The translations under genes and the position numbers were made by a program. From the NCBI RefSeq assembly GCF_009720525.1, contig NZ_CP043930.1, positions 7,824,001 through 7,888,000 of the forward strand: a DNA stretch of 64,000 nucleotides, written 5' to 3'. The DNA is from Gimesia benthica (GTDB taxonomy: Bacteria; Planctomycetota; Planctomycetia; Planctomycetales; Planctomycetaceae). Shown piece by piece: positions 136 through 34,619 of this stretch. How positions within the stretch are numbered: position 1 is the stretch's first letter; every line of letters begins with the position of its first letter. The notes beneath the pieces are model-generated. The model had not been told where the DNA came from and did not search any database. It saw only the letters and a list, made by a program, of their open reading frames with translations.

Positions 136-236
136 GCGTATGAGATTCATCGGACTGGCCGCTGTTTGAATCGGGGAATGAATCTCCCGCAGGCCGGTCT
201 GCATGGAATCTGCATGGAATCTGCTGGGAGAGCATC

Positions 237-2581: not shown

Positions 2582-2781
2582 CTGACCTCGTCGTTTTACT
2601 CGCGGTGCTGGCCCTCTGGTTCATCTTGAATCTCTGGATCCTGCCCCGACTGGGAATGCAGACCTGTCTGAGTGGGCTGTGTGGACTCAACCTCCAGCCT
2701 TGTCCTCAACCTGTAAAAACCGCTACCACTGACCGTCGAGATCCACAAGCGGTATCCCGACATCCAGAACAGGGAGAATAA
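2578..2781 (+). CDS. Small cysteine-containing membrane protein in the sulfide operon
   Basis: A 67-residue protein with one N-terminal hydrophobic helix (about residues 4-24), followed by a cysteine cluster C-x4-C-x6-C at about residues 29-42 and a short polar tail. I do not recognise the family. The ATG at 2578 overlaps the stop of the persulfide dioxygenase gene (ATGA), with GGAG just upstream, so it is very likely translated. Its stop is four bases from the sulfide:quinone oxidoreductase start. The predicted membrane anchor plus thiols suggests a sulfur carrier or an anchor for one of its operon partners, but that is inference. A longer reading from an upstream ATG at 2485 would only duplicate the end of the previous gene in another frame. 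Confidence 0.75.
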   Translation: MTDLVVLLAVLALWFILNLWILPRLGMQTCLSGLCGLNLQPCPQPVKTATTDRRDPQAVSRHPEQGE

Positions 2782-2785
2782 AAAT

Positions 2786-10600: not shown

Positions 10601-12813
10601 AGTCCAATACGGGCAATGTAGGCCTCGTACTCTTCTGCTTCTTTGGCCTGTTCTGCTTTAATTCGCTCGACATTAGCTCGGTCACGTTCCTGAATCGCAA
10701 CTTCCCGGTTTTTGACCGCTTCTTCACGGGCAATTTCTTCTTTCTCGCGCGCTTTATCCGCCTCTTCTTTTTGCGCAATGGCGACTTTTTCCGACTCAAT
10801 CGCCTGTGTCAATGCGATCGTTTCTTTTTCTTTCGCTTTCACGGCATTGTCACGTTCTTCTGCAGCGACTTTTTCAGCTTTTCGTGCGTTTTCCGCTTCA
10901 GCACGAATCCAGAAGAAAGCTCCGGTCACAATGACCAGCACGGTTGCCAGCATGCCCACGAACACCCGCTTAGCGGTTTTCAGACGCTGCTGACGCGCAT
11001 CGCGCTCTGTCTGGGCTTCGCGGATCGAGTCGATCAGGTCGGCGTGTCCGGATTCTTCTTCCTTAAGTAAGGAGAGCGCGAGGTCGTAGTCCCCCTTGGC
11101 ATACGCGGTATTCGCATAACACAGGGTTGTCTTTTCGACGCCTTCCCGGGCGGTCTTGTTTTCCGGCCAGAGGGAAACGGCTTCCTGGAATCCAAATAGG
11201 GCACGCGAGAACATTTCGTAATTCTCGGTATCGATGGCCTGTTTCAAATCTTCTTCGGCCCGGGTTGCCAGTGAGATACTCTCTGAGTGCGACTGATACT
11301 GCAGAATGGCCTGCTGAAGTTCTTGTACACTCTGGTAGCGGTCTTCCTGTCTCAGGGCCATCGCCTTCATCGCGATGTCAACCAGCTCACCGGTTTTCTC
11401 GGTCGGCACGATTTCGTTCTTGGCCGCCGACATCAGACACTTCATGGCGGTCTTGCCCGTATGCGGCGGACGTCCCGTCAGAATTTCATACAGAATCGCC
11501 CCCAGTAGATAGATATCCGACAGCGGTGTGATCTTATCGACGGGCCCGGTTGCCATTTCCGGTGCCATATAGGCGGGAGTCCCCCCCATGCTCGAAGTCG
11601 TGATAATGCTTTCTGATTTCCGGAAGCCCGACGTCGACTGGGCAAGCCCCCAGTCCATCACCAGCACTTCGCCGAACTCACCCAGCATCACGTTTTCGGG
11701 CTTCAGGTCGCGGTGAACCACGCTCCGTGAATGGGCAAACGCGACGGCATCGGCCACCTTCATCAGGATATTCAGATTTTCGCCCAGCGAATTTTTGCGG
11801 ATCGTCTTCAGCCAGGGACGTCCTTCGACTTTTTTCATTGAGTAGAAGAGCGCGCCGCTGTTGTTGCTACCCACATCGTAAATGGGAACGATGTTCGGGT
11901 GATCCAGTTCTCCGGTGACGACTGCTTCGGCCAGGAACTTATGCCGCTGGTCTTTGTTCTTGGCGGTTTTGCCCTTGAGCATCTTGACCGCGACCTGACG
12001 GTCAATTGAAGTCTGGCGCGCAGTATAGACCACACCCATACCTCCCTGTCCCAGGACTTCCAGCAGTTCGTATTCCGCATTCTCCAGGTATTCTGAGTTG
12101 ATCTTGTCGCTGAAGTCACGTTTTTTGATCACGAGCGAAGTCTGGTTCGTCAGTTCCTCCAGGGGAACTTCCCGGGCCTTGATGGTCATTTCCGGGCCTT
12201 CCGGAATCGTAGCCATCCCGGGTCCCCAGGCATCGTTCATGGTCGCCACCAGTTCCGGGGGCACGTCGTCAGAGACAATGGTGGCGTCAATGTCGGCAGG
12301 AGAGCTGCCATCCTCGACCAGGGTTGCGCCAATATCGGATTGATCCAGCGGCTCATCGATGATCAGGGTCTGGTCGTTACCTTGTTCGGGCTGATCGTTG
12401 GGGTTTTCGCTGACCGTCTGCATGCCGGCCCAGCTTTCATGCTCTTCCTCGGTGATCGTCCGGTCCAGATCATTCAGGTCCGGATCGACAATGGTGGCAT
12501 TGATTTCATCAGACACGCCGGCGTCGACCATGGTCTGATCGTTGCCTGCCAGGTCTTCATAAGTATCATTTTCCGAATCAGACTCTTCCATTGTCTGGAA
12601 CTGATCATCAGACATTGTGGCATCCGACGTGTCTCGCGCTTCATCAGCCAGCGCTTCGGAATCCCATTGATCCGAAATGATCGTCTGGTCGATGTCACTG
12701 CCAGCTTCATCGGAATCAGAGAACGAATCGGGCAGCGTCTGATCATTGCGCAGGCTCTGATCGTCGTCAGCCGATGCTTCGTTCTGTTCTTCTTTGTCCG
12801 GAAATTCATTCAT
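7660..12813 (-). CDS. Membrane Ser/Thr protein kinase with 21 WD40 repeats
   Basis: A 1,717-residue Hanks-type kinase. Residues 1-230 are acidic and repeat short Thr motifs such as DQTLPD, DATMSD, DQTMVD and NATIVD. The kinase domain (about 248-510) has the glycine loop GQGGMGVV (255-262), Lys277, HRDLKPEN (367-374), DWG in place of DFG (387-389) and APE (417-419), so it should be active. A helical linker, one membrane helix (about 622-642) and a long charged coiled coil (about 643-765) follow. A stretch ending RLRNWEWGRL (about 770-800) is typical of planctomycete kinases. Then come 21 WD40 repeats, probably three seven-bladed propellers, outside the membrane. It lies 111 bases after the giant repeat protein gene on the same strand, with no clear terminator between. 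Its targets are unknown. Confidence 0.93.
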   Translation of the reverse strand: MNEFPDKEEQNEASADDDQSLRNDQTLPDSFSDSDEAGSDIDQTIISDQWDSEALADEARDTSDATMSDDQFQTMEESDSENDTYEDLAGNDQTMVDAGVSDEINATIVDPDLNDLDRTITEEEHESWAGMQTVSENPNDQPEQGNDQTLIIDEPLDQSDIGATLVEDGSSPADIDATIVSDDVPPELVATMNDAWGPGMATIPEGPEMTIKAREVPLEELTNQTSLVIKKRDFSDKINSEYLENAEYELLEVLGQGGMGVVYTARQTSIDRQVAVKMLKGKTAKNKDQRHKFLAEAVVTGELDHPNIVPIYDVGSNNSGALFYSMKKVEGRPWLKTIRKNSLGENLNILMKVADAVAFAHSRSVVHRDLKPENVMLGEFGEVLVMDWGLAQSTSGFRKSESIITTSSMGGTPAYMAPEMATGPVDKITPLSDIYLLGAILYEILTGRPPHTGKTAMKCLMSAAKNEIVPTEKTGELVDIAMKAMALRQEDRYQSVQELQQAILQYQSHSESISLATRAEEDLKQAIDTENYEMFSRALFGFQEAVSLWPENKTAREGVEKTTLCYANTAYAKGDYDLALSLLKEEESGHADLIDSIREAQTERDARQQRLKTAKRVFVGMLATVLVIVTGAFFWIRAEAENARKAEKVAAEERDNAVKAKEKETIALTQAIESEKVAIAQKEEADKAREKEEIAREEAVKNREVAIQERDRANVERIKAEQAKEAEEYEAYIARIGLAAAKIDENAFESAIELLKGCPERLRNWEWGRLMHLCSQSSRTYDAKAPVDSLALSQDNTQYVTGSRDGFARLWDRATGQILATFDHNNHPVLAAAISPDGKILATGSEDPNGYIKLWDLETHLPIARKFEDPSQSAPFDRGHTEGILSISFSKDGERLLTSSYDKTARLWDVDSGQQIRRFWGHNWWVWDANFSTDERRIVTASQDGTAVIWSVETGEKGAPFTGHQGPIYSAHFSPDPQSTHVVTSGYDRRVLLWKPEDIVPFDFSKIVSGQKVNAPPYLAFEGHQDSVQSAEFSQDGSMIISASHDNTVKLWDVETVKAIKTFRGHDSWVQVATLLNDGKWILSASHDAHTKLWNIAGYAEIRTLKGRVLEKHVDAVLDVSFSKDGKHLVTASRDKTAISWDVATGTPEKEFTEGHAFLASSAVFLPDRKRLATAAVDNSVRIWDIQTGTEHKRFEHTGRSAAIDVSADSRLLLTGSDQKTVRIWNIETGKLIRELRGHKSEVSAVAFSDDMRYCASGDARGRCMVWEVASGKQLHRLEAHTRRINGLAFLPDGKTLLSASGDNTVGNWDITTGEENQQKILKHPDAIMSMDVFDNGTKAVTSCADGLVRIWNLSTPEVTQTIHPANGLINSVSVSHDNKRLLTANVQQRVIQVWALDTGKELQVPGNNGHLQPFLDFKARGGMLWTAVFSPYHDSILTVGGRDARLWNGVTAQQLMAFHPHGVVASASFSPDGKWLVTGSWDNSAKIWNTETGQAEMKLEQKHTGYVNTVRYSPQGNRIVTASDDGTSKIWDAQSGEMLLSLDQPGTHVKSAVFSPDGKKVVTASDDKTLVMWDAQTGKKLSTFKGHDWPVLEVAFSHDGKRLISGSEDNTAIIWDIATKEKKVLAGHTASVESVVFSPDDSRAFTASDDGTAKLWDTKSGKEILTLSSHSQGVTSVDFSPDGRFVATGSQDGQAILWLTVDWKDKAVARVVSRDP

Positions 12814-12924: not shown

Positions 12925-15900
12925 TTATTTCTGCCTGCGATTCAGTTTATATCGCCGATTCAGCAGACGGCTGCCATATTTTTCCATCGCGGATTCGCAT
13001 TCGTTCTGCGTCACCGGCTTGCGGAATAATGATCGACCGTGGAAATAACCGGAAAGTAAAGCGGCACTGCCCCAGGCTTTTTCACTGGTTTCGAGTTGTG
13101 CCGTCGCTTCAGCAGGTGAGGGGAGGGGCGGCTGTTCCTGTACATATTCTACGTCAGATCCAGGCGTCAGGAGAGGTTGCCAGTCTGAGGTTTCATCAAT
13201 CAGGATCTGCAGGAGCAGGTCAATCCGGTCGGAAAGGTCTGCTTCACCCGCGTCCGCCATGACGATAGTAGTCAATTGTTCCAGGTCGCTGAAGGACAAC
13301 GTCCGCTGCTCCTGGTTTTCAAGTTGGGAATTGATCGTGTTATTCGTCGAGGGCTGCTGCTCTGAACTGGTGGGAGGATTGGACTGTTCCTCGGTGACAT
13401 CGCTGGCTTTCCCGTTTCGGATATCGACATCCATCAGCAGACGTACCCGCTCTTCACCCGCTTCCTTCAGATAAATCTGGTAGCGGCCGTCAGGCAGTGT
13501 GCTGAACAGTTTCGGCAGGTTATCCAGGTCAGATTCCTGCAGCGGCACATCCTCAATCACATCGCCGTTAGGAGCCAGGATCCGCAGGAAGACCAGACGT
13601 TCTGCATTCCGATTGGCTTCATTGATCGCCGTTTCCAGCAATTGAGTTTCCCGCATGCTGAACACGGTCTGCTGGAGCGAAGAAGCATCCAGGATCACTT
13701 CCTGTTGTGGGAAGATCAGCTGTGGTACCTGGGGAGTCGTATCGATGGCGACTGTCGCCAGGCCCTCACCAGGCGTTTCCAGAACGTCGGCTTCGCTGGT
13801 GAAATCGAGAGTACCGTTCCCATCAGAGAAGGTAAACTGCTTATCCCCCTGCATGGTCACCAGGATCGGAATATCAGCGGCAGGGTTTCCCGCATCCGGG
13901 TTGGCGGTATAGGTATGCTCAAATACGAACGAACCAGGATCGGAGAAGTTGAACGTCTCCACTGTTCCATCACCCCAGTCGATGGTGATAAAGAAGTTCT
14001 GTTCGGTAAAGCGTCCGAAATCACCAGTGACCGTCGCCAGACCTGTGGGCTGAATCTGTGGTGTCAGAATATTCCGCAGATCAGGAGGCAGACCGGCAAT
14101 TGCACCCGTTTCTGAATTCATTGTCATGTTGGCATCAATCAAGACACCACTGTCCCCGTGTCCCGAGAAGACCCCGGATCCCGCGACACTGTGATCGGAA
14201 GCGACCCCTGTATCGTTGATGGCCAGGAATCCAAAGCCTGCCTGGAGATCGATATTCCCGTTGCCGCCAAAAGCACGCACAGAGGCATTCAGGGTTAAAT
14301 CTCCGGGCCCAGTCGATTCCAGGCCGATGTTACCACCCGAACCGTTGGTGACCGGGGAGTCGACTGTCAGGGGGCTGGCGTTCGAGACGAAGATGTCTCC
14401 GGCAACGCTTCCCGAATGAGTGATCCCCGCCAGTCCATCGACAGTTCCAATCGTCAGAAGTGCGCCTCCCAGATCATTATGAATCTGAACATGACCGGAA
14501 TCGGTATTGTGTGCAGCCAGTAGGGAGACTGCCGTTTCCAGAGCATTCGCAGAGCCAGCGCCGGTCGCGCTGCGGATCACCAGTTCATCCGCGATGATGT
14601 CGCGGCCACCGGCATCACCGGCGTCCACAAGCCCGCCGTCTGTGGTAGTCAGGCGGGTCAGAGTGGTCGTCATCAACTGGCCAACGGTGATCGAATCCCC
14701 GGCCTGGAGATCGACAATCCCCAACCCGGCGTCAAAGACGGTTCCATCTGACATGGTAATACCGCCACCTCCGGTCCCGACAGAAGCGGAATCGGCCAGC
14801 AGCATGATTTTCCCATCTGAGGAACTCAAATCGCCCTCACTGCCAAAATTCAGACTGTGCTGTGCGGTCAGGTCAATCGTTCCACCAGCCGTGCTGAAGC
14901 CATCGTTGATTTCAACCGAGGAATTGACGCCTGTTGCTGTGACTTCAATGGTACCGATACCATCCGTTTCAACAACATTCAGCAGAACGCCGGGATTTTC
15001 GAACAACAGGGAACCATCCGCTTTCACGGTAATATCAGAATCCGTGGTAGAGATCTCTTCAAAGGACGCAGACTCTTGTCCCGTCTGTTCGTAGTTGATG
15101 TCACCGGTCCCCGTTGTCAGTTTCGTGACCCTCACTGATCCGGTCGCGGCCGAAGACACGTGGTGCAGGTCCAGATCGCCAGTGTTACTGTTGACTGATA
15201 AGGTTCCAGCAGAGACCTCGATCGGATCTGTATTACCAATTCCGTTGACCGCTTCCAGAGTGATTGAACCCGATGCCGCATTCAGATCGACTTCCGGAGC
15301 ACCCTGGTCGTCAACCGCGTCATTGATCTCACCAGCGGAGGTGACGGCGATCGATCCCTCCAGGGCGACAAGATCACCGAGTAGAATGTTACCGAAGTTC
15401 AGCGTGGAAACATCAATGGCCGGTGTAGCGCCTCCGGCTGACATTGAGGTCAGCGTCAACGTATCACTCTGGGCGTCTCCCGTATTGGCGACCGTAATCG
15501 AACCGTCGACGGTTGTTGCCAGATCGATGGCCAGGGACTCATTACCGACCTGTTCCAGATTGATGTTGCCGGTGCCGGTAGTAATGCTGGTTGCAGTCAC
15601 ACCCGTTGTCGCGGTGTTGTGCAGCAGGACGTCGCCATTGGTCGAATCTGCTGAGAAGGTATCGACACTCATCTCAAGTGTGTCACCTGTGCCGATCCCT
15701 GTAACCGCATTCATATCCAGACTGGTGGCATGAATATTGAGTTCACCCGGTACACCATCGTTCTGGTCGATGATCGCTGCCTTGGAATCGAGCAGCACAT
15801 TGTCAGAAATCGTTTCGATCAAGCCGTTGAGCAGGATGTTTCCTGTTGTGAAGACTTCAATATCTCCCGCTGTGGACTGGATCAGGTCGTGCACAATCAG

Positions 15901-18900
15901 GTCATCCGTCTCGATAATCCGGATTTCGCCCGCTGTCTGGTTGGTGACATTGATCTGATCGATGTGAGTTTCCAGATGGCCGTTCAGATCGGCCACTTTG
16001 CCGGCACCCAGGGACGCGATAATCGTGACCCGGGCTCCCGACTCATTGGCGATCAGATCTTCTCCCGTGCTGTCGCCGGCATCTACCAGGCTGGAGTCGG
16101 TATCGATCAGAATCGCAGAACTGGTGTTGTTGGCCGTGATGATCTGGCTGAGGACAATATCATCGCTGGCAACCAGGCTGACTGCCCCATCCCCGGCATT
16201 GATGAATGTTCCATCGGCCATGGTGATGCCACCAAACAGGCCTCCCGCTCCATTGTCTGCATCGGCGGTCAGGCTCACGGCCCCCGACGTGCTGGTCAGA
16301 TTCGTCGTCCCGTTGAAGAGGATATCGTTGGCCGTTGAAATCGTGACCGAGCCGGTATCACTCAGCAGACTATGATTCAGAATCAGATCGGCGTCGGTAT
16401 TCGTCGTTTCCAGGAACAGAGTACCGGTTCCCAGTGTCTGTACCAGGTCGCTGACAGTGATACTACCGGCAGAACTCAACGAAATGTTGGTGTCCGTTCC
16501 CCCGGTCAGGCTCAGGTTGTCTTCATTGAGGTCAACCAGTTCCAGGGCAGGGGAGTCGTTGTTGATGACGAAATCAGATCCGAGCACAGTACCGTCGAAC
16601 TGCTGTGCGGTGATATTCACAGTCTCTGCGGAACCTGATTTGAACAGGATCGAGTTTACCGCATTAACGTCGATTGCTCCCCCACCAGCGTCGATAATAT
16701 CCGGTGCGTCCAGCCGCAGATTTGCAGTCTGCAGACCAGTCGGAACAGTGATGGAAACATCGGAAATAAAGCTGATGGTATCCTGGGTGTTGCTGATACC
16801 GGTGGTCGTGGAAGCATCCAGAGCCCCGCCGGTCGCTCTGACATAAGTCGTGCCCGCGGTGCCTGTGCCCGCATCCAGATTGATCAGTTCCGGCGTAGTA
16901 CCCGTGTTGTCAATCACGATCTGGTCACCACTGGTCAGGTCCAGGTGGCCCACGCTGGTCTGCAGGGGATCAAAGCCAGCTGCAGTGAAGACATTCGTAA
17001 TACCTCCAATGTTGCGGCCAGCGACAATCGTCAGCAGGTCACCACTGGTCAGTTGACTGTCGGTGCTGTCTGAGTCGAGTACGTCCCGGTCGGCGTTCAA
17101 TGTGATATCAGCCGTATTCTCAGCGGTCAGAGACGTCACCAGAATATCGCTGTCGACTCCGGTTGCCGTCAGAGTGATGCCATTGTTCAAGTCGGAAGAT
17201 GAGTTGTTCGTGGAAGTAACATCCAGCACTTCAATGGTCCCGGCAGCGTTGACGATGATGAAACCGTCGAACGTCGTCAGTTGCGTCAACGTGATACCGT
17301 CCACTTCGTCGATGCGAAGGCCTCCGGCGTTGGTGTTCACGTCAGCCGTCACGCTGTTGACGTCCGTATCCACGTCAATCCCGTCCTGCGTACCACCGGC
17401 ACTGCTGGATGACATGTTCAAGTCATCGGCGGTGATCCGGTTCGAGTCGGCCCCGTTGGTGTCGAGAATGCCGTCATCAGCAGTCAGCATGACGTCCGCC
17501 AGACCGGTCGCCGTGATGGTGGTGACCAGAATGTCGCTGTTGGTTCCGGTGGCATTGAGAGTGATGTCGTTATCGTCGCTGTTCGAGTTGTTCTGTGAAA
17601 CGACCGAAGTTGCCGTAAGACTCGCCGTATTATTCACGGTGATCGCACCGTCAAATGTCGACAGGTCCAGTAACTCGACGGCGATCCCATTGTCAATCAG
17701 CAGATTGCCGACTCCCGAGACGGTCGCGGAAAGTGTGCTGATCTCTGTTTCCAGCGGATTTCCATCACCAATGCCAGTTACGGCGTTCAGAACGGCAGTG
17801 GAAGCGACGATGTCTGCATGGCTGTCGCCATTATCGCTGATCGCAGCCGACAGGGAATCAATATTGACCGTGCCCGTGGTCAGCAGGCCAGCCAGAAGCA
17901 CGTCCCCGTCTGCAGTCAGGTTAATGGTTCCCGTGCCTGCATCAATCAGTGATCCGTCTGTCATCGTAATCGGATTGCCGTTACTGCCCGATGCATTGTC
18001 TGCGGTGAGAGTCACGGTGCCGGAGGTTGAATCGATCAGAGCGACACTACCCAGCAGCAGGTCATCTTCTGCAGTCAGGGTGACCGTTCCGGTATTACTT
18101 TTCAGTGTGGCATCCAGGTGAATTCCGCTGCCGGAGCCCGTCGATTCGCCCAGCAGTTCGATATTCCCGGTGCCCGAGGCCGAAACCACTGCGTCATTCG
18201 AAATCTCAATTCCGTCGTCACCGTTCGAAGTGCCGTTGATCGTGATCTGGCCGTTTTCATTGATCACGATACCGTTGGTCGTCGCGATCAGTGTTCCCTG
18301 TGAAGTTGTTCCACCGCCCGTTGATTCACCGGTGATGGAAATGGCTCCTGCCGTCGATTGAATCAGGCTGGTAATCTGAACCCCGTCCCGGTCTGCAGTC
18401 GTTGTTCCCAGAATGGTGATGTCCGCTGCATTAACACCCGCACCATTCGAGACAATCTTTGCCTGGTCGGAGAGCACAAAACCGGTACCATAATCCGTGG
18501 TTCCAGTGATTCCAATCGCGCCATCGGTTGACGTGATATTCGTGCCTGCACCATCAATCATGACGCCATGATTGTCGTTGATTCCCTCTCCCGCGGTTCC
18601 ATTGATGGTGATCGTGCCGGCATCGATTCCGCTGGCTGAGGACGAAACGGTCGTTCCGGAATGCAGGAAGACCCCATGATGATCACTGGTCACGACATCC
18701 GCTCCGCCGAAGCCGGTAATCAGAATGTTACCTGTTCCGGTAGTCGAGATCGTCGCATTATCTGCCTCGACACCGATGAAATCGCCTGCGGTCAAGCCCC
18801 CGTCATTGGCCAGCAGTGTAATACCGCCGTTGACCGTTTTCAGGTTGCTGCCACTGTTTAGTTTGATATTCCGGTTCGATGTCAGCAGAATTGCACCGGT

Positions 18901-21900
18901 TCCCAGTGTGCTGATGGTCGTCGCGAGGTCGACAGTCAGAGTGTCTGTCGCATCCAGGGTGATAGAACCGGTGGCTGACTGCATGGTTTCCGTAACATTC
19001 AGCGTACCCGTGTTATGAATTACAATGTCCAGATCCGCGTCCAGACCATCCTGGGCAGTGATACCTCCAATCGTCAGGGCTCCCGTGTTGTCCAGGAAGA
19101 GGCCCCCCGTTCCCGCATCTGCTTCGAGGAAGGCAATCGCAGTGTCGATCGCATCCGCAAGCTGGCCAATACTCAGATTCGAATTCAGAACGAGCTGGCT
19201 GGCGGTCACGTTGTTGACGCCTGTGCTGTCGTTGTCTGTGATTGCCCCCAGGGTCGAAGTAATATCGACGCGGCCACCAGTCGTGGTAATACCGGAGAGA
19301 GCGATGTCCCCCGCAGCGGAGATTTGAATCTGTCCCCCCTGTGATTCGACCCGGCTGCCGGAAGCCATGGTGATACTGCCAACGTTCGAACCGTCATTGT
19401 CAGCGGTCAGGGTAATACTTCCGCTCGCCTGACTGAGAATGCTGGTTGTCGCCGACAGGGTGATATCATTGTCCGCCAGCAGCGTAATACTGCCGTCAGC
19501 GCTGGTCAGGTTTGTGTCCAGCTGAATATCGGAGGTTGTTCCTTTAGCCGTCAGCAGAATAGAACCGGCACCATTGACTGTCGAAGCGCCACCGGTGATC
19601 GACATCGTTCCGTTCGAAACATTTGCTTCCACGGAACCTCCACCGGTGCCAGCCGTTGTATCGAGGCTGGTATTCAGTGTGGTGAATCCGGTAACCGCAT
19701 TGACGGTAATACTGCCTCCGTCTCCGGTGAGCAGAGAGCCATTGGAAAGATCGACCTGGCCGGCGGTGGAAGTAACAGCAATGTTCCCTCCCGCAGCAGC
19801 ACCATTGGTGGTGTCGATTCCGCTGCCTGTCGAGATGACATCCCCGTCAGCCTGTACATTCACGCTGCCACCTTCACCGGTATTCACTCCATTGTCTTCC
19901 AGGGTGATACTGCCGGTGGCGTTAACTGTGATATCGCCCAAGGCGTTCACGCCATTATCTCGAGTGACCACATTCCCGTTATGGGCATCGATGGTGATTG
20001 CACTCGCGGTTCCGTTGGTGGTGGTCAGCGAACGCGTCAGCACGTTCGCACCATCAATGTCGATCGTTCCCGTACCGGCATCCAGGCTGGACCCGGATAC
20101 CATTGTCACATTGCCGGTACCGGAGATGTCGGAATCCGCGGTTACCGTAACAGCCCCATCGGTGCTCACAGCATCTTTCAAGATGACATCTTCAGTAGAA
20201 CTGATCTGGATTGTAATCCCGTTTCCACCAGTCAGTGTCTGGTCGAAGGTGATGTCGTCCACGGTAGTTGAGGTGAATACCACGGATGCTCCCAGCGAGA
20301 CAATGTCGTGGAAGGTCTGTCCGCCGGTCGTGGTGATTGTGCCACCGTTGACTTCCGTCGTGCCATCCACATCGGTCGTCAGGCTCGTCAGGGCAGCGGA
20401 ATTGCCGACCTGGTCATCAAAAATCGTGGCTCCGGCAGTGTTAATGTTGAGTGTGTGGGCACCGTTCAACGTCGATTTGAAATTGACAGATCCCGAGACT
20501 GAACTGGACAGAACCGTATTGGCCCCCAACAGCACGGCATCGTTGAATAGCTGACCGCCTTCGGTGGCAATGCTGCCCCCGTTGATAAACGTCGTCCCGT
20601 TAGCATCCGTCGTCAGGCTGACGAGTTCGTTTGTATCACCCACGGTCCCATTGAAGGTTGTGTCGCCATCCGTATTCAGTTCCAGCGTACGCGTACCATT
20701 CACACGCTGATTGAAGGTGATCGCTCCACTGCCAGTACTGGTAAGGACTGTATTCGCCCCCAGCTCGACATCATCATTAAAGATCTGATTACCGGTGGTC
20801 TCAATGCTTCCACCATTGATCTGTGTTGTTCCGTTTGTATTTGTAGTCAGGCTGATCAATGCGGCGGAGTTACCAACCTGGTCATCAAATATCGTTGTGC
20901 CGTCTGTATTGACATTGAGGGTATAAGCCCCGTTCAGAGTCTTAGCAAACTGGATTGTCCCGCTGGAGGAACTGGAGAGAACCGTATTTGCTCCCAGTTG
21001 AACCATGTCGTTATAGAACTGTCCACCTGAGGTTGCAACACTGCCTCCGTTGATGTTGGTCGTGCCGTCGGCATCGGTGGTCAGACTTGTCAGCTCATCG
21101 GTATTGCCCACAGTGCCATTGAAAGTCGTCACGCCAGCGGTATTTAATACCAGTGTAAATGCACCATTCAATGTTTGATCGAACGTAAGCGCTCCGTTGC
21201 TGGTACTGGTGAGGACAGTGTTCGCGCCCAGTTCAACATCGTCATTGAAAATCTGATCGCCGGTCGTTTCAATACTTCCGCCATTAATCTCTGTAGTGCC
21301 GCCGGCGTTAGTTGTCAGGCTCGCCAGCGCTACTGTGTTACCAACCAGGCTGTTGAATGTGGTCGTGCCTGTTGTGTTCAGGTTTAAGGACCAGGGGCCG
21401 TTGAGTGACTCCTGAAAAGTGAGGGCACCACTCGTGCTGCTGGTAAGTATTGTGTTTGCTCCCAGCTCTACAGCGTCATTAAAAATCTGCTCAAATGTGG
21501 TCTCAATACTCCCGCCGTTGATGTAAGTCGTTCCGTTGGCGTCCGTCGTCAGGCTGACAAGTTCGTTGGTGTCACCCACGGTGCCATTGAAGGTCGTGTT
21601 GCCATCAGTATTCAGTTGCAGCGTAAACGTGCCATTCACCCGCTGATTGAAGGTGATCGCTCCGCTGCCGGTGCTGGTGAGGACCGTATTCGCTCCCAGC
21701 TCGACATCGTCGTTAAAGATCTGGTCGCCAGTCGTGTTGATGCTGCCGCCATTAATCTGAGTGGTACCATTTGCATTTGTGGTCAGGCTGGTCAGGGCTG
21801 CGGAGTTGCCGACCTGGTTATCAAAGATCGTTGTGCCGTCGGTATTGACGTTGAGGGTGTAGGCTCCGTTGAGAGTCTCAACAAACTGGATCGTCCCGCT

Positions 21901-24900
21901 GGCTGAACTGGACAGAACGGTATTTGCTCCCAGTTGAACCATGTCGTTATAGAACTGCCCACCCGTGGTCGCAACACTGCCTCCATTGATGTTGGTTGTT
22001 CCGTTGGCATCGGTCGTCAGGCTTGTTAACGCGTCGTTGTTCCCTACGGTTCCATTGAATGTCGTATTTCCATCGGTATTCAGATTGAGTGTAAAGCTAC
22101 CGTTGAGGGTATTATTGAAGGTTAAATCACCACTGCTTGTGCTGGTCAAAATCGTGTTGTCGCCCAGCTCTACCTGGTCATGGAAGATCTGATCACCGGT
22201 GGTCTCGATACTTCCACCGTTGATCTGGGTCGAACCACTGGCATCGGTGGTCAGGCTCGTCAGGGCAGCCGAATTACCGACCTGATCATCAAAAATCGTG
22301 GCTCCGGCAGTGTTAATGTTGAGTGTGTGGGCACCGTTCAACGTCGATTTGAAATTAATCGAACCCGAGGCTGAACTGGAGAGAATCGTATTGGCCCCCA
22401 AGAGTACGGCATCGTTGAATAGCTGACCGCCTTCGGTGGCAATGCTGCCCCCGTTGATAAATGTCGTTCCGTTGGCGTCCGTCGTCAGGCTGACGAGTTC
22501 GTTTGTATCACCCACGGTCCCGTTAAATGTGGTGTCTCCATTCGTATTCAGTTCCAGCGTGTGCGTACCATTCAACCGCTGGTTGAAGGTGATCGCTCCA
22601 CTACCTGTACTGGTAAGGACTGTATTCGCCCCCAGCTCGACATCATCATTTAAAATCTGGTCGCCAGTCGTGTTGATACTGCCGCCATTGATCTGTGTTG
22701 TTCCGTTTGTATTTGTGGTCAGGCTGATCAATGCGGCGGAGTTACCAACCTGGTCATCAAACCTGGTCGTGCCGTCGGTATTGACGTTGAGGGTATAAGC
22801 CCCGTTCAGAGTCTTAGCAAACTGGATTGTTCCGCTGGCTGAACTGGAGAGAACCGTGTTTGCTCCCAGTTGAACCATGTCGTTATAGAACTGTCCACCT
22901 GAGGTCGCAACACTGCCTCCGTTGATGTTGGTCGTGCCGTCGGCATCGGTGGTCAGACTTGTCAGTTCATTAGTGTTACCCACAGTGCCATTGAAAGTCG
23001 TCACGCCAGTGGTATTCAATTCCAGTGTAAATGCACCATTCAGTGTCTGATCAAACGTAAGCGCTCCATTGCTGGTACTGGTGAGGACAGTGTTTGCTCC
23101 CAGTTCAACATCGTCATTGAAAATCTGATCACCGGTCGTTTTAATACTTCCGCCATTAATCTCTGTAGTGCCGCCGGCGTTAGTTGTCAGGCTCGCCAGC
23201 GCTGCTGTGTTACCAACCAGGCTGTTGAATGTGGTCGTGCCTGCTGTATTCAGGTTTAATGACCAGGGACCGTTTAACGACTCATGAAAGGTCAAGGCAC
23301 CACTCGTGCTGCTGGTGAGCATTGTGTTTGCTCCCAGCTCTACAGCGTCATTGAATATCTGCTCAAATGTGGTCTCAATGCTCCCGCCGTTGATGGAAGT
23401 TGTTCCGTTGGCGTCCGTCGTCAGGCTGAGGAGTTCGTTAGTGTCTCCCACGGTGCCATTGAAGGTTGTGTTGCCGTCAGTATTCAGTTCCAGCGTATAC
23501 GTGCCATTCAACCGCTGATTGAAGGTGATCGCTCCGCTGCCGGTGCTGGTGAGGACCGTATTCGCTCCCAGCTCGACATCATCGTTAAAGATTTGATCAC
23601 CAGTCGTGTTGATGCTGCCGCCATTAATCTGAGTGGTACCATTTGCATTTGTGGTCAGGCTGGTCAGGGCTGCGGAGTTGCCGACCTGGTTATCAAAGAT
23701 CGTTGTGCCGTCGGTATTGACGTTGAGGGTGTAGGCTCCGTTGAGAGTCTCAACAAACTGGATCGTCCCGCTGGCTGAACTGGACAGAACGGTATTTGCA
23801 CCCAGTTGGACCATGTCGTTATAGAACTGCCCACCCGTGGTCGCAATACTGCCTCCATTGATGTTAGTTGTTCCGTTGGCATCGGTCGTCAGGCTTGTTA
23901 ACGCGTCGTTGTTCCCCACGGTTCCATTGAATGTCGTATTTCCATCGGTATTCAGATTGAGTGTAAAGCTTCCGTTGAGGGTATTGTTGAAGGTTAAATC
24001 ACCACTGCTTGTGCTGGTCAAAATCGTGTTGGCACCCAGTACGACCTGGTCATGGAAGATCTGATCACCGGTGGTCTCGATACTTCCACCGTTGATCTGG
24101 GTCGAGCCACTGGCATCGGTGGTCAGACTCGTCAGGGCAGCCGAATTACCGACCTGGTCATCAAAGATCGTAGATCCGGCAGTGTTAATGTTGAGTGTGT
24201 GGGCACCGTTCAACGTCGATTTGAAATTGACAGATCCCGAGGCTGAACTGGACAGAACCGTATTGGCCCCCAACAGCACGGCATCGTTGAATAGCTGACC
24301 GCCTTCGGTGGAAATGCTGCCCCCGTTGATAAATGTCGTCCCGTTAGCATCCGTGGTCAGGCTGGCCAGTTCGTTGGTGTCACCCACGGTCCCATTGAAG
24401 GTTGTGTCGCCATCCGTGTTAAGTTCCAGCGTATATGTGCCGTTTAACCGCTGATTGAAAGTGATGACCCCGCTGCCAGTGCTGGTGAGAATCGTATTTT
24501 CTCCCAGTTCTACGTCATCATTGAAGATCAGGTTTCCGGTGGCGTTGATGCTGCCACCATTGATCTGCGTAGTGCCTCCGGCGTCTGTTGTCAGACTGTT
24601 CAGAGCGGTATTGCTGCCGATGGCGCCATTAAAGATCGTTGAACCCGAGGTTTGAATTTCCAGATCAATCGCACCGTCGATGGTTCCATCGAATTGAATA
24701 TCGCCTCCCCCGGAACTGATCAGGGTTGTATCTGTGACAAAGTTGACCGCGTCATGGTAGAGTTGGGATCCGGTTGTTGTGATGGTACCGCCGTTGAACG
24801 GTGTTCCAGTTGCACCCGACGAACTGATTTCGACAGAAGCGGCATTAATATTTGCCAGGATATTCACACTTTCGGCAGTCACGAAGAGATTACCAGTGCC

Positions 24901-27900
24901 CAGATCAACATCACTCTGGAAGATGACCGGATCGTCGGCTCCAGCCAGGATTGTCAGATCTGCATTAAACAGGCTGTCCAGAGTGTTGACCTCGATTGTA
25001 TCGACTCCTGCAGAAGCCCCTACGCTACTGGTGCGAATCGTGATAGAACCGGTCGGATTCAGGAACTCCACTGATTCACTGAGAGTGGAATCGATGAATA
25101 AATAATTGTCCCCTGCCAGGCCGTTATCGGACAGAGATATCGTTTCATCAGCATCAGTAAAGTCAAACTCTCGATCAGCCACCAGCAGATTATCCAGAAT
25201 GGGCTCCAGGCCGGTGAAGGCAATCGTTGTCGAACCATCCGTCATGCTGCTGTCGGAAATGGTGATGATGCCATCTTCCCCTTCCGCAGGCACGTTATCC
25301 GGCGTAAAGACATAACCAACCGAATCCGCTTCAAGAGATACACTGTGATTGAGTACCAGCGTATCCCCCAGAATGCCAGCGATTCCCAGCGAGTTACCAT
25401 CGTTGTTCTGGGTGCCCCCATTGAAGGTGATGCCATCGGTGGGATTGAAGAACAGGTTGTCGGGCTGATTGACAATCAAGACATCGTCACCGCCCAGGCC
25501 GTTGAAGGTGATTGAGGTAATGTCAGTGATTGACACACTGGCCAGGACCAGTTCATTCGGACCGCCGAAGTCGCGTGTTAACACAAAGGTGGCAGTGTCT
25601 TCGCCGGTCAGCGTCAATACCAGTTGATCGTCTTCCCCCGTTCCGTAGACGACAATATCACCAGATCCGTAGATTCCTGGATAAACAGTAGGCAGGTTCT
25701 GGAAGGCTCCAATGTGAGGTATGCTGGTGTTTGTATCTGCCGCGAACTCCGAGGAACCATAGGCGGCCGAGGAACCAAAGCCGACAACGTATTGTGTTGC
25801 CAGAGAATCGGTAGGGATATAATTGGGATCGTTGGCATACGCAAACAGCGGGTCGCCAAACGTATTGGTCGAATCGAGGGGCACGTTCGAATCGAGGTCA
25901 TTCCCGTTAAAGGCGTTGTAAGTCACATTTGCATTCAGAGGTGCAATAACACCAAAACCTTCAATCGGTGGCAGGGGAGGATTCGCCTGCAGGTACAGTG
26001 TGATATTAGTTCCACTGTCGCCGGAAACGATTTCGGTACCCGAAGGATCATCCAGGTTCCAGTGCGCGACCAGACGCGAGTCGCCGGTCATACTGGAAAC
26101 GCCTGTGTTCATGATCGTTGTACGATCGGTAGAGTCCAGCACATCATTAAACCAGCCGATATCATCCATCAGACCATCAAAGAAGCGTCCGCTCCCCGGG
26201 TCCTGGCCGACATTCATTAAACCATTGACCGTGTCAGTAAAATGAGTGCTGTCAAAGCCGGAGAGGTTCTCATCGAACGAGGAGAGATAAGGTTGTTCCG
26301 AACCGTTGATGTAGATATGCATCTCCCCGGTATCGGCATCCCACGTATATTGGATGTTGGTCCAGACGCCGCCGTTGACCGACTGGCCTCCCGCCTGGAT
26401 CGTGTAATCTCCGCCGTCCTGCGTGCGGCCATAGAACTGACCACCACTGTTGGTTCGATACTGGAACTCGAGCCCCCCGTTATCGGGGCCTTCGAAGAAC
26501 TGGTTTCGTTTCCCGACATCATCCATCTTGACCCAGAAGTTCAACGTCCCTTTCCGACCCACATCGAATGAGGCATCCTGGAAGGTGGCGAAATCGTCGA
26601 TGCCGTCAAATTCGAGGGCACCACCAAAGACACCTGCCGTTTCCTGGAATTCAGGTCCAAAAGGCACAATCCCATCAGTGACCAGATACATCTGAATGCC
26701 GCTCACATTGTCAACCGCGATGTCTCCTGAACTCTGATCGAAATCCCAGTGAGCAACCAGGCGTGCATCTCCGGACAGGGCACTGACGCCGGTCGTACGA
26801 ATTGTATCCAGATCAGTCTGTCCGAGTGCCTGATCAAACCAGCCCACATCGTCCATCTTGCCGTCAAAGAAGCGGCTACTGTCACCCGGGTCGCGTCCGA
26901 CGTTCATCATTTCATTGATGGTACTTACAGTCGCAGTCCACTGGGCAAGATTGGAATCGTATGTTCCACTCAGATAACCGACCTCGGCACCATTGATGTA
27001 GAGGTGCATTTCCGGATTGACACCGCCATTGAAATCCCAGGTGTACTGGATGTTCTGCCAGACTCCGGTCGTCCCGCCCGCACCACCATTTTGAATGATG
27101 TAGGTATTGCCGTTTCCGTCATTACGATTAGGGCTGCCGAAGAACTGACCACCACCGTTCGTGCGGTACTGGAACTCCATGCCCCCGTTATTCGGACCTT
27201 CAAAGAACTGGTTGCGGCGTCCCTGGTCATCCATGTTCACCCAGAAGCTGAGAGTGCCGGATTCTCCTACATCGAAGTTCGCCGACTGGAAGAGGCCGAA
27301 ATCATCGACGCCGTCAAATTCCAGGGCACCGCCGAAGACGCCGCCCGTCGGATCCCAGGCGGGAATCGTAGCGGAAGGCTGTGGTCCTTCGTAGCTGAAA
27401 CCATTGAAAATATTGTTGGTGATATTCACCGAATTCGCTGGTACCGCGAGAGATGGATCGAAATAGATTCCCCCGGGCTGTGCATAGATCCCGTTTGAGT
27501 TCGTCGTGGAGGAATCCTGCCAGTCGAATGTATTGTGATTGATGTCGATTCCGTCGGCCGTCATTCCCCGGTTGGTGATCGTGACCGTATAGTTCTGGTC
27601 GCCCGCTTCCTGGAAAGCACCCGCTTCGAGACCATTGCCGAAGTAGTTAAAGGAGATCTCACCACTGAAGGCATGGTTGTTGGGATCACCGAAGGTCCCC
27701 TGTGGTCCAATCGCGATGGGTCCCCAGCGGAAATGGTTTTCACGGAATTCATTCCTCGTAATCAGGAAGTTTTCACCGCTGCCTCCGTCCCCGTCACGGA
27801 TCGCGGCGCGGCCGTAATTTCCTTCGAATATGGAGTCGGAGACCTCCAGGTTATTCGCTCCCTCAAAGACGACGGCACTACGATAGTTATCACCGAAAAG

Positions 27901-30900
27901 CAGATTGTTCAATGTAGTATTGTCTGCATTCGTGTAAACCACATAGCCTCGATAATCAGTGGCCGAGGTGTGCGTCTCCCAGCCCAACTGGGCACCCGAG
28001 ATAGAAACGTTGTTCGCACTGATATTCACGGCGATGTCAAAAGTATTCGTCGGGGCTCCCGCCTTGCGGATTTCGACAACGTCTTTACCGGCTCCGATCA
28101 GTGAGACCGATTCATCAATTTCCAGTGTGCCCGTTGTATGATAGATACCGGCGGCAATGTTGATGATACCACCGGTACCTGCCACATCGACGGCATCCTG
28201 GATATCGGCATCTCCGGCTGATCCCAGTACATTCACGGTTGCAGCATCACCGGAGACAGTCGCTGCGACGAGGTCACCATCCAGGTCAACAGTGTCAGCG
28301 TTGAAGGCGATACTGGCTGCGGTCATCACCGTACCATTGGCAACGGTAATCGACTCGACATTCAGTTCCACGTTTTTCCCGGCGTCGAAAGTCAGACTGC
28401 CATTAACGTTCAGGGTGTCTGCTGCACCTTCTCCGTTGATCGTCAGTGAAGCGGTATAATCGCTAGCCAGTGAATTCAGTTCGATCTGGTCGGCGCCGTT
28501 GCCTGTATTGATCGTCAGCAGGCCATCCGGGTTGGTAAACGTCAGCAGTTCGCCGGCTGTCGAAGTGACGGTGGTCTGCCCACCGCCGGCATCGCTGATC
28601 GTAATGATTTCCGCGACCGCACTGTAATTCAGGGTCACGTTGGTCGTGTTGATCGTTGAGGTGATCGGTTCCAGGCCGCTGTAGGTGATGAAATCAGTGC
28701 CTGCACCATCAATGCGGATCGAACCGGAGTTGCTGTCAACAAAGAAATACTCAACAGAAGTGGTCGTCCCCAGCAGGTTCAGCACATCCCCCGGACTGGT
28801 CGAGTCCTGGCCTTCGCCATCGTAATCGACAGTGATCCCGGCCGCAGCGAGAGCAGCATCGATGGTCAGACTGTCATCGCCATCCCCGCCTTTCACTGTG
28901 ATTGAAGTCGTACCTGAAAGAGCACTGGTGCCGATCAATGTTCCACCCAGACGGTATTCGATGTCCGAACCGTTGACCAGAATTTCAATGTCATCAGCGT
29001 TTGCAGTTCCCTGCAGTTCAATGTCGACGGCACCCGTAATCGTGAAGTTTTCAATTTCACTGTAAGTCACGGTGGGGAAGCTGCCGGTAACCGATCCTGA
29101 GCCGTCCCCATTGTTTGAGACGACTGCCGTTCCGGCTGCAGAAGTATCCACGTGAAGTTCATCACCCAGCGGGTTACTGATTGGGTCACCGCCGACAATG
29201 TTAAAGGCTTCCGCATTCGGTGTGACCTGGAAACTGTCGGCGGCACTGCCACCGGTCAGGTTCACAAAGTTACTGAAGGTCAGTGTGTTGGTGCTGTTAT
29301 AAGTGTTGACGCCGTTCAGTGTCCAGGTGGCGGCGCTGTCGATACCCGTCAGAGTGTTACTGCCGCTGCCCCCGGTGAGGACGTCGATATTCGCGAAGCT
29401 GACGGACTTGGTAGATTCACTGCCATCGAAGCCGTCAATTCCCCCGAGTGCGCTGAGCGTGACGTTCAAATCGGAAGAATAGGTGTCGAGGTTCAAATGA
29501 TCTTCGCCGTCTTCACCATCGATGGTTCCATTCAGCGTGGATCCATTATTACTGAAGCGGAAGACATCCGCGCCCTGACCACCCAGCAGGTCGAGCGTAT
29601 GCGAACCGTTGATGTTGAACTGGTCAACATCATTGCCCCCCTGGAGGGTTTCAAAACTGGAGAAGGACAGGGAAGTCCCGCTGCCGTAGACGCTCGCCGG
29701 CTGAATCGACCATGTAGCGGCCGCGTTCTGTCCGGTCAGTTTGTCGGCAGCTCCTGATCCTGCTGCGATGTTGTTGATATTGTCAAACCCGCCACTGATC
29801 GACGCCTCGGTTCCCTGGAACCCGTCAAAGGTTCCGTTGGCCGTCAGAATCACGTCAATCGAAGAGGTCAGGGCACTGAAATCGATCTGGTCGGCACCCG
29901 CCTGACCGTCAATTGTTCCCGTCAGGGTTGCGCCATCGGCAAAAGCGAAGACATCGTTTCCGGAATTACCTGAGAGATTCAAAGACTGACTGCCGCTGAT
30001 GTTGAACTCATCAACGTCGGTTCCTCCGGTCAGATTCTCAAAATCACTGAAGTTCAGCGTGTTTGATGCTGTGTACTTATTCGTGCCATCCAGCGACCAG
30101 ACTGCAGACGCATTGATCCCTGCCAGGGCATCAGTATTACTGCTCCCCTGAATCGTGTCGATATTATCAAAATCAGCTACCGTGGAAGCTTCCACCCCTG
30201 TAAAGCCATCCGTTGATCCTGCTGCTGACAGAGCGAGATCGAGACTGAATGTGGACGCTGAATAGTCCAGGATGTCACCGCCGCCCAGGCCATCGATGCT
30301 GCCTGTGATCTGGCCACTACCGCTGAACTGGAATGTGTCGCTGCCTGTCGATCCAGCCAGGTGATTGAAACCATCAAAGTCAATCCCGGAGACCGATCCC
30401 TGGTTGACACCATTGATCAGGTAAGTGGTGCCTGCACTCAGTCCACTGATGGTATCCTGTGTGTCATCACCACTGAGGTTTTCGATCGTATTAAACAGAT
30501 TCACGCCCGAGGCACTGCTGGTTTGCAGATCGACAGTCACAGCACTGGTCACAGCAGAGAAGTCAATGTGGTCCGTTCCGTCACCCCCGCTGAGGGTACC
30601 GGTAAGCTGTCCGCCATCCTGGAAGGTGAACGTGTCGGCCCCCGCGTTACCTGTCAGATTCTCCACGTTGCTGAAACTGACGGCGCCGGAGAGCAGGCTG
30701 CCGGAATTCAAACCATTGATGAGCCAGTCGGTCGTCTGGTCGGCACTGACCAGCGTATTCGATCCACCCGCACCATTAATGCTGATGCCGCTCGGTGGCA
30801 GAATGGTGTCGACGCTCATATCCAGCCGCACGGTATTATCGGATCCATTTCCGGTGATGATAATACTGGAGACTTTATCGAACTCATGTGAAGGCACGAT

Positions 30901-33900
30901 CTCGTTGGAAGTGCCCGTTTCCAGGATGCGCAACTGACTGCCGTCCCGAATGATCGTAATGTCATTGCTGGACCAGTCGCCGGCAGTCACAACCATGCTT
31001 TCCACGAGGTCATTCAGGTTGATCGTCACAGTCGCGGTGGCGGTCGAACCCGCGTTGTCATCGACAATCACGTCCAGTGTGTAACTGGAATTGGTTTCGA
31101 AGTTGAGCAGACTCTGATCAGCAACAATGATCTGCCCCGTAGAGGTAATATCAAACGCGGCAGAACCTGTACCTCCCGCTTCGGTAAAGGTCAGTGTGTC
31201 TCCCGGTTGATCAGCATCGCTGGCAACTATCACCGCGCCGACCAATGTGCCGTTGGCTGCGTTCTCATCGACTTCGCGCGTCTGGTTGGCGATGACCGGA
31301 ACATTGTCATTCAGCGGATTCAGATTGATAGTCACCGTCGCCGTATCGGTTGCATTCGCACCATCCGACACCAGAATGTCCAGAGTGAAGGACGTTGTTG
31401 TTTCGTAGTCGAGCAGGCTCTGGTCAGCAACGACAATCTGACCACTGGGAGAAATGTCAAACGCTGCAGCGCCACTGCCACCGACTTCTGTAAATGTCAA
31501 CGTGTCATTTGGCAGATCATCATCTGAAGCAACGATTACAGCGCCGACAGAAGTTCCATTGGTTGAGTTCTCGTCGATACTCCTGATCTGATTGAGTACG
31601 ACTGGAGCATTGTCATTAACTGGATTGAGATTAATCGTGATTGTTGCCGTATCGGTTGCACCGGCTCCATCAGTGACCAGGATATCCAGGTCGAAAGAGG
31701 TCGTGGTTTCGTAGTCAAGCAGACTCTGATCAGCGACTGTGACTTGACCGCTAGAAGAAATATCAAAAGCAGTCGCTCCTGTCCCGCCGGTTTTAGAGAA
31801 AGTCAGACTGTCATTCGGCAAGTCGTCATCACTGGCAGGGATTGCTGCTCCAACGTTGGTGCCATTGACCGTGTTTTCATCGACACTCAAAAGCTGATTG
31901 TTCACAATCGGAGTATTGTCGTTGACCGGATTGAGATTAATCGTAATTGTTGCCGTGTCGGTCGCCCCGGTATCATCGGTAACCAGAATCTCAAGTCCAA
32001 ACGAAGTCGTTGTTTCATAATCCAGCTGATTGACATCGGCAACCGTAATCTCGCCGTCTGCACTGACGTTAAAGGCGGTTAGCCCCGATCCGCCCGTCAG
32101 GCTGAAAGTCAGGCTTCCTGGCGGTACGTTTGGGTCAGCAGCGACGATTGTTCCCACAGATGTCGTATTCGCTGTATTTTCATCAACGGAAAAGCTCTGA
32201 TCACCTGCTGACGGCGGTGAATTGACCGTCAACACAACATCGTTGCCATCTCCGCCCTGATAAGTGATATAGACCTGGTTGCCGTTGAAATTGAATAAGG
32301 TCCCTTCGGCCAGTCCGGCGAAATTACCTGTGACTGCATCGACATCATCATTGTCAATCAGCAGGAACTGGTCACCGGCGGCGGCCGTGAAAGAACTGCT
32401 GATATTCAGTGTTGCTCCGGTCAGATCGACTTCACCGGTCACCTGGATCTGGTCGTACTCTGATCCAGCATTAGTTCCGTTGATTTCAATATTGAGATCC
32501 GCATCTGCGTCGAGTGTCAGGTCGCCCGTACTGAGAACTCCGGGACTGGAACCCGGTGCCAGAGCTGCATCGGCATTGATGGTCACGGGCGCTGAGATGC
32601 TGCCGGAACCACCCAGGGTGGCGCCGGTCGCGACGATCACTTCCGATGTCGCCAGGGTCCCCTCAACTTTGAGAACGCCGTCCTGCACGTTGGTGGCACC
32701 CGTAAACGAGCTGCTTCCGGAAAGAATGACTTCCCCCGCACCAGCGATCGTCAGGCTTCCGTCACCGGAGATGTCTCCAGCAAACGTGGCTGAGGTCGAA
32801 ATCGCCTGATTCAGTGTCAGCGAACCGGCAGGACCTCCCAGCAGCACACTCCCCGTTCCGGTCAGCGACGTGAGTGAGACAGAGAACCCGTTCAGATCCA
32901 GCACGCTGGTTGCAGACGTCAGATCGATGCTGGATGTATTGGGAATCGCAGCTGACTGGGCCAGTTGCAGGGTACCGTCATTGACAGTGGTCGACCCGGT
33001 GTAGCCATTTAACGCATCCAGGATGACAGTTCCCGAACCGTTCTTGATGAGGTTGTTCCCGTTCAATTGAGCTTTCACACTGCCGGAGCGGAGATCCAGA
33101 TCGGACTGGGACATCAAGACGCCCCCGGTTGCGATGACGGTACCATCTTCCAGTGTGAACTGTGCGACGGTTTCATCGAAGCTGCCCAGATCGAGTGTGG
33201 CGCCACCGGAAAGAGTCAGCGCGACACTGTCGTCGAGCAGGTCACTACCGGCGAGTTGATAGGTGTCACCAGCCTGACCAGACAGAATCAGATCGGTGGG
33301 GGCAAAGCTGGCGTCATAGGAATTGAGTTCAACAATCGACGCACCACCGGCAGTGGTGATTTGCAGGGAGTCTGCAGGAGAAGCGAAGGTAGTCAGTTCG
33401 AAGCTGCTGCTCAGGCTGCGAATCTGCATTTCTCCCGGCAGAGCGGCATTTTCCAGGATCGCATCGGTCGTGGCAGTGGGCAGGTTGATGACGATGTTGT
33501 TGGCCGTGTTACTTCCGCCAAACACCGGTTCCAGACCGGTATAGCTGATTTCCGTGATCGCATTTCCGCTGAAATCGACGGCACCAGCACCCGGACCTGT
33601 CAGATTGTGAGTAACGGTATCAAAGGTGCCCCCGAAGAATTCGAGCGCGTCGTTGCCTCCCAGACCACCGTCAAAAGAGATTGAAAGCTGAGTCAGCTGT
33701 GCATCGCCGTAATTGAGTGCGAGCAGATCGGTCTCACCATCGGCTCCCTGGATCTGGATCGAATTCAATCCGGACAGGGAAGTGGAAAACAGCAGGGCAT
33801 TCGCGTTGTTTCGATCGAGAAGCTCGACGTCATTGCCATTGATTTGCACGGCAAACGAATCATCAGCGCCGATTTGATTCTGCAATAAGACATTCAACTG

Positions 33901-34410: not shown

Positions 34411-34619
34411 GTTGAGATGCTCCTTCGAGTTCCTTGTAATGCACAGAAAATTAATGGCATGAGTTCGCGAATACCATTCAAGAGGCAATACAGTAGAGGG
34501 GAACACAAACAGGGAGCGTTTTACGCACACCGGCCCTGCATTTCTGCGAAAACCACGTTACCCCTGGCCGACATGTGCACCTGCGATCAGGTCTGTGGTA
34601 TTGCAGAAAAACTCCCCAC

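What the first reader, a model, noticed from the sequence alone, without database searches (positions are those of the whole stretch)
20221..24666. Exact 8-unit higher-order repeat inside a bacterial giant protein
Nineteen units of exactly 234 bp (78 residues) are ordered so that each unit resembles the one eight units away (about 95% by eye), far more than its neighbours. The anchor TTCGGTGG recurs at 24304, 22432 and 20560, exactly 1,872 bp apart. Units 1/5, 3/7 and 4/8 in each octet also match, implying growth from 4 to 8 to 16 or more units by unequal exchange, like alpha-satellite DNA. The copies are expected to change in number by 1,872 bp between strains, altering protein length by 624 residues without a frameshift.
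Basis: seen in the sequence. Interest (0 to 1): 0.72.

Follow-up and report, generated by a model that had tools for sequence, protein, structure and literature searches.

The report
Nested repeat in bacterial giant protein
A giant surface-type protein of a planctomycete bacterium carries a fibre-like stretch built of nested, satellite-like repeats, and close relatives have the same stretch with only two units, so such stalks appear to grow and shrink in whole blocks.

Summary
A 7,201-aa ORF (12925-34530, minus strand) contains 18 full 234-bp units between two degenerate caps. From unit 2 on, units eight apart are 88-98% identical (octets 2-9 and 10-17: 117 of 1,872 bases differ, 89 at third codon positions); 0 of 100,000 reorderings match this. 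Within the octet 4/8 and 5/9 match (84-85%), 3/7 does not (68%). The copies are too diverged for an assembly duplicate (dS 0.21).

In 12 of 17 same-genus genomes (own included) full units could be counted: 2 in eight, 12 in two, 10 in one (gapped assembly), 18 here. Three relatives with about 90-94% identical flanks have 2 units, exactly two octets fewer. Tree tests place the B-type units before the split of these relatives; A-type tests are inconclusive. So the long array is old and probably shrank in relatives, or was imported here. The units are predicted as a continuous beta-helix (pLDDT 89), so whole blocks can lengthen a rod without a frameshift. Long arrays in G001, G002 and G050 lack the octet pattern. 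New variant of known variable-length stalk genes; strain-level variation was not testable.

The parts
12925..34530 (-). Giant ORF, 7,201 aa: PATR/autotransporter-type, cadherin and LamG-type stretches, the 78-aa repeat array, and a C-terminal region conserved in the genus
   Evidence: the last 401 aa match in 16 of 17 same-genus genomes, own included, one of them only at E 3.7e-4
24598..24831 (-). Unit 0, degenerate N-side cap (35-41% protein identity to units 1-18)
20386..24597 (-). 18 full 234-bp (78-aa) units, no indels
24364..24597 (-). Unit 1 (B1 type), 96% identical to unit 1 of relative G004
22492..24363 (-). Octet 1, units 2-9
20620..22491 (-). Octet 2, units 10-17 (93.8% identical to octet 1)
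20386..20619 (-). Unit 18 (A1 type), 93% and 96% identical to units 10 and 2
20146..20385 (-). Unit 19, degenerate C-side cap (240 bp; 37-42% protein identity to units 1-18)
7660..12813 (-). Neighbouring gene in the same orientation: serine/threonine kinase with WD40 repeats (1,717 aa); a link to the giant protein was not tested

Best explanation
The array is the extensible stalk segment of a giant secreted, surface-type planctomycete protein. Each 78-aa unit is about three rungs of a continuous beta-helix, so units can be added or removed in whole numbers without disturbing the fold. Homologous exchange between the most similar copies moves blocks: first a B-A pair, then a B1 A1 B2 A2 four, then an octet in this genome. 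As neighbours diverged to about 61% protein identity, only copies eight (or four) apart stayed similar enough to recombine, which fixes and reinforces the octet period, as in satellite DNA. The same process can delete blocks: recombination between the similar A1 units 2 and 18 would give exactly the two-unit state of the closest relatives. Shown: the nested pattern, its age, the copy-number differences among species, a tract of unusually high identity between octets, a predicted beta-helix. Inferred: surface location, stalk role, handedness of the helix, the exchange mechanism, and that relatives contracted rather than that this genome imported the array.
Against: AU tests on A units do not reject independent expansion (p=0.081 and 0.058). 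The A2 cluster of G000 and G009 has UFBoot 78 but only 49 in the A-only tree. More than one contraction to the same two-unit state is needed if G000 is nested among its relatives, so import into G000 is a live rival. Units 3/11 and 6/14 are only 59-69% identical to the units four places away and the tree does not place them as A1 or B2 with support (one search puts 6/14 with B2-type units at 63-69), so the doubling history is not clean. Units 2 and 18 differ from each other at 9 sites but from unit 10 at 17 and 16 (counted), not what one simple unequal crossover predicts. Foldseek found no PDB match below E 0.001; the second look also lists other helix types (LpxA/LpxD/GlmU) at high Z with rmsd near 12. 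Secretion signal, anchor and surface location were not tested. Long arrays in G001, G002 and G050 show no octet pattern, so nesting is not required.
Confidence: 0.66

Rival explanations
1. Import: the two-unit state is native to the species complex, and the core of the array (units 2-17) came into this genome by recombination from an unsampled relative with a long array.
For: G000 is nested among two-unit relatives in gene-flank trees; B-type units are older than the complex; G004 unit 1 is 96% identical to G000 unit 1 while its A1 unit is 91% identical to units 2, 10 and 18.
Against: No donor was found among the genomes searched: the nearest full units outside the complex are G009's, best matches 74-79%. 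G000 units 5/9/13/17 group with near relatives' B units and not with G009, but weakly (UFBoot 75, 43).
Confidence: 0.26
2. Recent expansion in this genome alone from its own two units.
For: Two units is the commonest state in the genus (8 of the 12 arrays with full units).
Against: dS between 4,5 and 8,9 is 0.81 and between 12,13 and 16,17 is 0.69, against 0.20-0.30 for flanks between these species; AU rejects it for B units, p=9e-17.
Confidence: 0.04
3. Assembly artefact: the second octet is a duplicated or mis-joined copy.
For: The G009 array contains an N-bounded misplaced piece, so such arrays can break assemblies.
Against: The octets differ at 117 of 1,872 sites with a coding-type pattern; no N in the window; the genome is held as one contig. 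Collapse of further octets cannot be excluded.
Confidence: 0.03
4. The octet is a functional ruler: a partner or a helical twist with an eight-unit period selects for the pattern, as in titin or nebulin super-repeats.
For: dN is much lower than dS between octets and the period is exact.
Against: Orthologues with 2, 10 (gapped) and 12 units and no octet exist; purifying selection on each unit alone explains the dN and dS.
Confidence: 0.07

Closest known systems
Periscope Proteins (variable-length bacterial stalk proteins; PMC8201768 and PMC9704523, passages seen)
   Same: Tandem repeats in a long surface-type protein, number differs between relatives, high DNA identity among copies proposed to drive intragenic recombination, rod-like extension
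   Different: Here neighbours average 61% protein identity and the high identity sits eight units away; the predicted fold is a continuous beta-helix (the review also lists a beta-helical PATR case, ShdA); variation was seen between species, not strains
Alpha-satellite higher-order repeats (recalled)
   Same: Multimer whose members differ from each other while multimer copies are similar; diverged array edges
   Different: Protein-coding, in frame, under purifying selection, only 18 units, in a bacterium
Titin and nebulin super-repeats (search listing seen; details recalled)
   Same: Super-repeat of several non-identical modules inside a giant protein
   Different: Beta-helix instead of Ig/Fn or helical modules; no partner filament known; orthologues lack the octet
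FHA/HxuA/EtpA-type two-partner-secreted and autotransporter beta-helix adhesins
   Same: Predicted beta-helix of similar build; PATR-type repeats elsewhere in the same protein
   Different: No relevant PDB sequence match (best E 0.64 to CD47); no secretion or barrel domain among Pfam/NCBIfam hits up to E 0.01
Planctomycete giant genes (PMC5177795, passages; PMC7716864, passages and section 16)
   Same: Very long genes for predicted surface proteins, common in this phylum and counted in Gimesia
   Different: The parts seen do not describe nested repeats

Membership tests
[quoted passage not shown]
   Adjacent 78-aa units: mean 61%, maximum 69%, so not met at that period; octet copies 92-99% protein identity unit by unit, met at 624 residues. 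The published screen used T-REKS, which was not run.
Periscope Proteins | Repeat number varies among close relatives | tested here: met
   18 versus 2 units in species with about 90-94% identical flanks. Within one species: not tested.
Periscope Proteins | Repeats fold individually and form a rod | tested here: inconclusive
   Models are an unbroken run of strands; folding of one unit alone was not tested.
Periscope Proteins | Cell-surface anchoring | not tested
   Surface location is inferred from domain content only
Higher-order repeat array | Copies n units apart much more alike than neighbours | tested here: met
   Lag-8 mean 0.918, lag-1 mean 0.613; 0 of 100,000 permutations
Higher-order repeat array | Copies homogenised after duplication | tested here: inconclusive
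   Consistent: 200-bp identical tract, P=0.0001, and uneven divergence, P=0.0007; local constraint was not excluded
Beta-helix adhesins | Beta-solenoid fold | tested here: met
Two-partner secretion (FHA-like) proteins | N-terminal TPS secretion domain | tested here: inconclusive
   None among Pfam and NCBIfam hits up to E 0.01; a diverged one is not excluded

The most novel reading that the evidence does not exclude
The nested arrangement solves a conflict in variable-length stalk proteins: length changes need near-identical DNA copies, while identical neighbours are thought to risk misfolding. In the octet array the recombining copies are separated by seven diverged units, so the gene can still lose or gain 624-residue blocks while no two neighbours exceed 69% protein identity. 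Array sizes 2, 10 (gapped assembly) and 18, differing by eight units, would be successive states of this switch.
Probability: 0.15. Interest if true: 0.68.

Novelty: new variant of a known kind. Interest (0 to 1): 0.5.

Why it matters
It gives a bacterial, protein-coding counterpart of satellite higher-order repeats in a genus where the same gene exists with caps only, with two units, with a four-unit period, with an eight-unit period and as a flat, well-mixed array. That makes it possible to test how array structure sets the rate and step size of length change, and whether neighbour similarity limits folding of long repeat proteins.

Tried and rejected
An insertion sequence in the G009 array (my first reading, notebook entry 1) was rejected: the foreign piece of about 1.25 kb is bounded on each side by 10 N and, by eye, reads like part of another giant protein, so I take it as an assembly gap or misjoin. 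The G009 count of 10 is therefore uncertain.

The fixed-offset left-flank comparison of G001 and G002 (dS 0.80, dN 0.53) was discarded because it ignores indels; one search gives aligned values (N side dS 0.24, C side 0.13). Paralogous giant genes in G001, G002, G013 and G016 (L095, L097, L099, L100) gave no 1,000-bp window above 0.50 at lags 150-3,999 and no unit hit; two more fetched paralogues (L096, L098) had no unit hit and were not scanned for lags. PDB sequence search found nothing relevant. Literature searches for bacterial higher-order or super-repeats listed no paper on such an array; they cover only the open-licence PMC library.

Rows dropped: the tree used 6 of 12 full units each of G001 and G002, left out caps and the interrupted 5' piece of G009 unit 7, and masked 60 bases of its 3' piece. 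AU tests left out G000 units 3, 6, 11, 14, both pieces of the interrupted G009 unit, and G001, G002, G005 and G011. G003, G006, G010 and G015 arrays could not be counted (contig ends, fragments, weak or no match).
Full report
The thing. The window's ORF 12925-34530 (minus strand, 7,201 aa) has two PATR, four cadherin and two LamG-type stretches by Pfam, then a repeat array at aa 3234-4795; the last 2,356 aa have no Pfam or NCBIfam hit up to E 0.01. The array is a degenerate cap (unit 0), 18 units of exactly 234 bp, and a degenerate 240-bp cap (unit 19). The genome is held as one contig of 8,027,492 bases; by size it fits Gimesia benthica E7, an inference.

The nested pattern. Lag identities are 0.82 at 1,872 bp, 0.70 at 936, 0.65 at 468, 0.59 at 234. 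Lag-8 unit pairs from 2/10 to 10/18 are 0.88-0.98; 1/9 is 0.75. 0 of 100,000 random orders reach the lag-8 mean; 564 reach the lag-4 mean and 29,700 the lag-2 mean. Within octets 4/8, 8/12, 12/16 are 0.85-0.87, 5/9, 9/13, 13/17 are 0.84, 1/5 is 0.79; 3/7, 7/11, 11/15 are 0.68-0.69, and 2/6, 6/10, 10/14, 14/18 are 0.59-0.65. Odd lags average 0.59-0.62 and even lags 0.68 or more, so odd and even units form two classes. With the unit tree I read the array as B1 A1 X A2, B1 Y B2 A2, twice, then B1 A1, where X (units 3, 11) and Y (6, 14) stand in the B2 and A1 places by position only; the tree does not place them there with support. The names are mine.

Not an assembly copy, not recent. The octets differ at 117 of 1,872 sites, 20/8/89 by codon position: dS 0.21, dN 0.023. 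Flanks of the same gene differ from G004 at dS 0.20-0.23, from G012 at 0.20-0.28, from G008 at 0.23-0.30. Units 4,5 against 8,9 give dS 0.81, 12,13 against 16,17 give 0.69 (my own Nei-Gojobori script). So the last octet duplication is about as old as the split of these species, and the four-unit-level duplication is older. The G000-G009 flank dS is 1.3-1.4.

Relatives. Of 17 genomes of the genus, own included, the C-terminal part is found in 16, one of them weakly. The array could be read in 13: 18 full units here; 2 in G004, G008, G012, G013, G016, G007, G011 and G005; 12 in G001 and G002; 10 in G009, with an N-bounded foreign piece inside one unit; caps only in G014. G003, G006, G010 and G015 could not be read. 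The 12 arrays with full units have even numbers, but they are not independent and G009 is uncertain. G004, G008 and G012 differ from the window by exactly 16 units; their flanks are 90-94% identical to the window's. G009 shows a four-unit period inside a gap-free stretch (1/5 91%, 2/6 96%). G001 and G002 are different: 12 units each, right flank 96.3% identical, yet units average 83% on the diagonal and 82% off it, so positional orthology is lost, and lag profiles are flat (0.78-0.83 and 0.80-0.84). G050, another genus of the family, has at least 20 units with a flat profile (0.75-0.78). Of these five long, evenly spaced arrays, two are nested. More distant arrays (e.g. L104, L105, L106) have uneven or other spacings; for L104 and L105 lag profiles show no octet, L106 was only window-scanned.

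History. A1 units of G000, near relatives and G009 cluster at UFBoot 97; A2 of G000 and G009 at 78 in the full tree but 49 in the A-only tree. AU tests: for B units, a clade of all B units of G000 and near relatives without G009's is rejected (0.011, SH 0.044), a G009-only clade is rejected by AU (0.024) but not by SH (0.148), and a clade of all G000 B units without near relatives' is rejected (9e-17). For A units the two corresponding tests do not reject (0.081, 0.058). Flank trees nest G000 among the two-unit relatives, with support 37-77 on the C side and 75-100 on the N side. Hence either relatives contracted, probably more than once, or G000 imported its array core. A single recombination between units 2 and 18 (96% identical) would yield the relatives' state, which I take as the simpler mechanism; it is inferred. 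A 200-bp identical tract across units 4-5 and 12-13 (P=0.0001) and uneven divergence (P=0.0007) fit conversion between octets after duplication. Against one clean crossover: units 2 and 18 differ at 9 sites, but at 17 and 16 from unit 10 (counted).

Link to known systems. Periscope Proteins (PMC8201768, PMC9704523; passages) are stalk proteins whose repeat number changes through proposed intragenic recombination, with identical neighbours seen as a misfolding puzzle. Here adjacent units average 61% protein identity (maximum 69%) against 87% in G001 and G002, while octet copies are 92-99% identical. That nesting relieves the puzzle is my most novel reading; G001, G002 and G050 show that it is not required. 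Searches of the open-licence library listed nothing of this kind; the nearest was a nested 10/11-residue leucine-rich repeat (PMC2946307, passages).

Verdict. Mechanism and direction of change remain partly inferred; strain-level variation is the open test.

Noticed in passing
L060:8738-10005 (G009): A piece of about 1.25 kb that by eye reads like part of another giant protein sits inside a repeat unit, bounded by 10 N on each side: an assembly gap or misjoin in a genome held as one contig.
   Followed up: yes
L110 and L111 (same genome, contig 1:1188000-1222000): Another giant ORF (7,286 aa) has long-lag self-similarity: 92% over 600 bp at lag 4,896, and 67-72% at 1,620, 1,671 and 3,276; perhaps a second nested repeat of about 1.63 kb.
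   Followed up: no
L064 and L066 (G001, G002): Two genomes with a 96% identical right flank and the same unit number have arrays whose units show no positional orthology; dS 0.45-1.06 per unit against 0.12 in that flank.
   Followed up: partly
L057, L059 against L058 and window 24364-24831: Units 0 and 1 occur in two allele groups: window and G004 (95-96% alike) versus G012 and G008 (72% and 81-82% to the window), suggesting recombination at the array edge between species.
   Followed up: partly
7660-12813: Kinase with a long WD40 region directly downstream of the giant gene in the same orientation.
   Followed up: no
about 31090-31996: The cadherin region of the same gene repeats at 306 bp with about 70% identity, an ordinary tandem repeat.
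   Followed up: no
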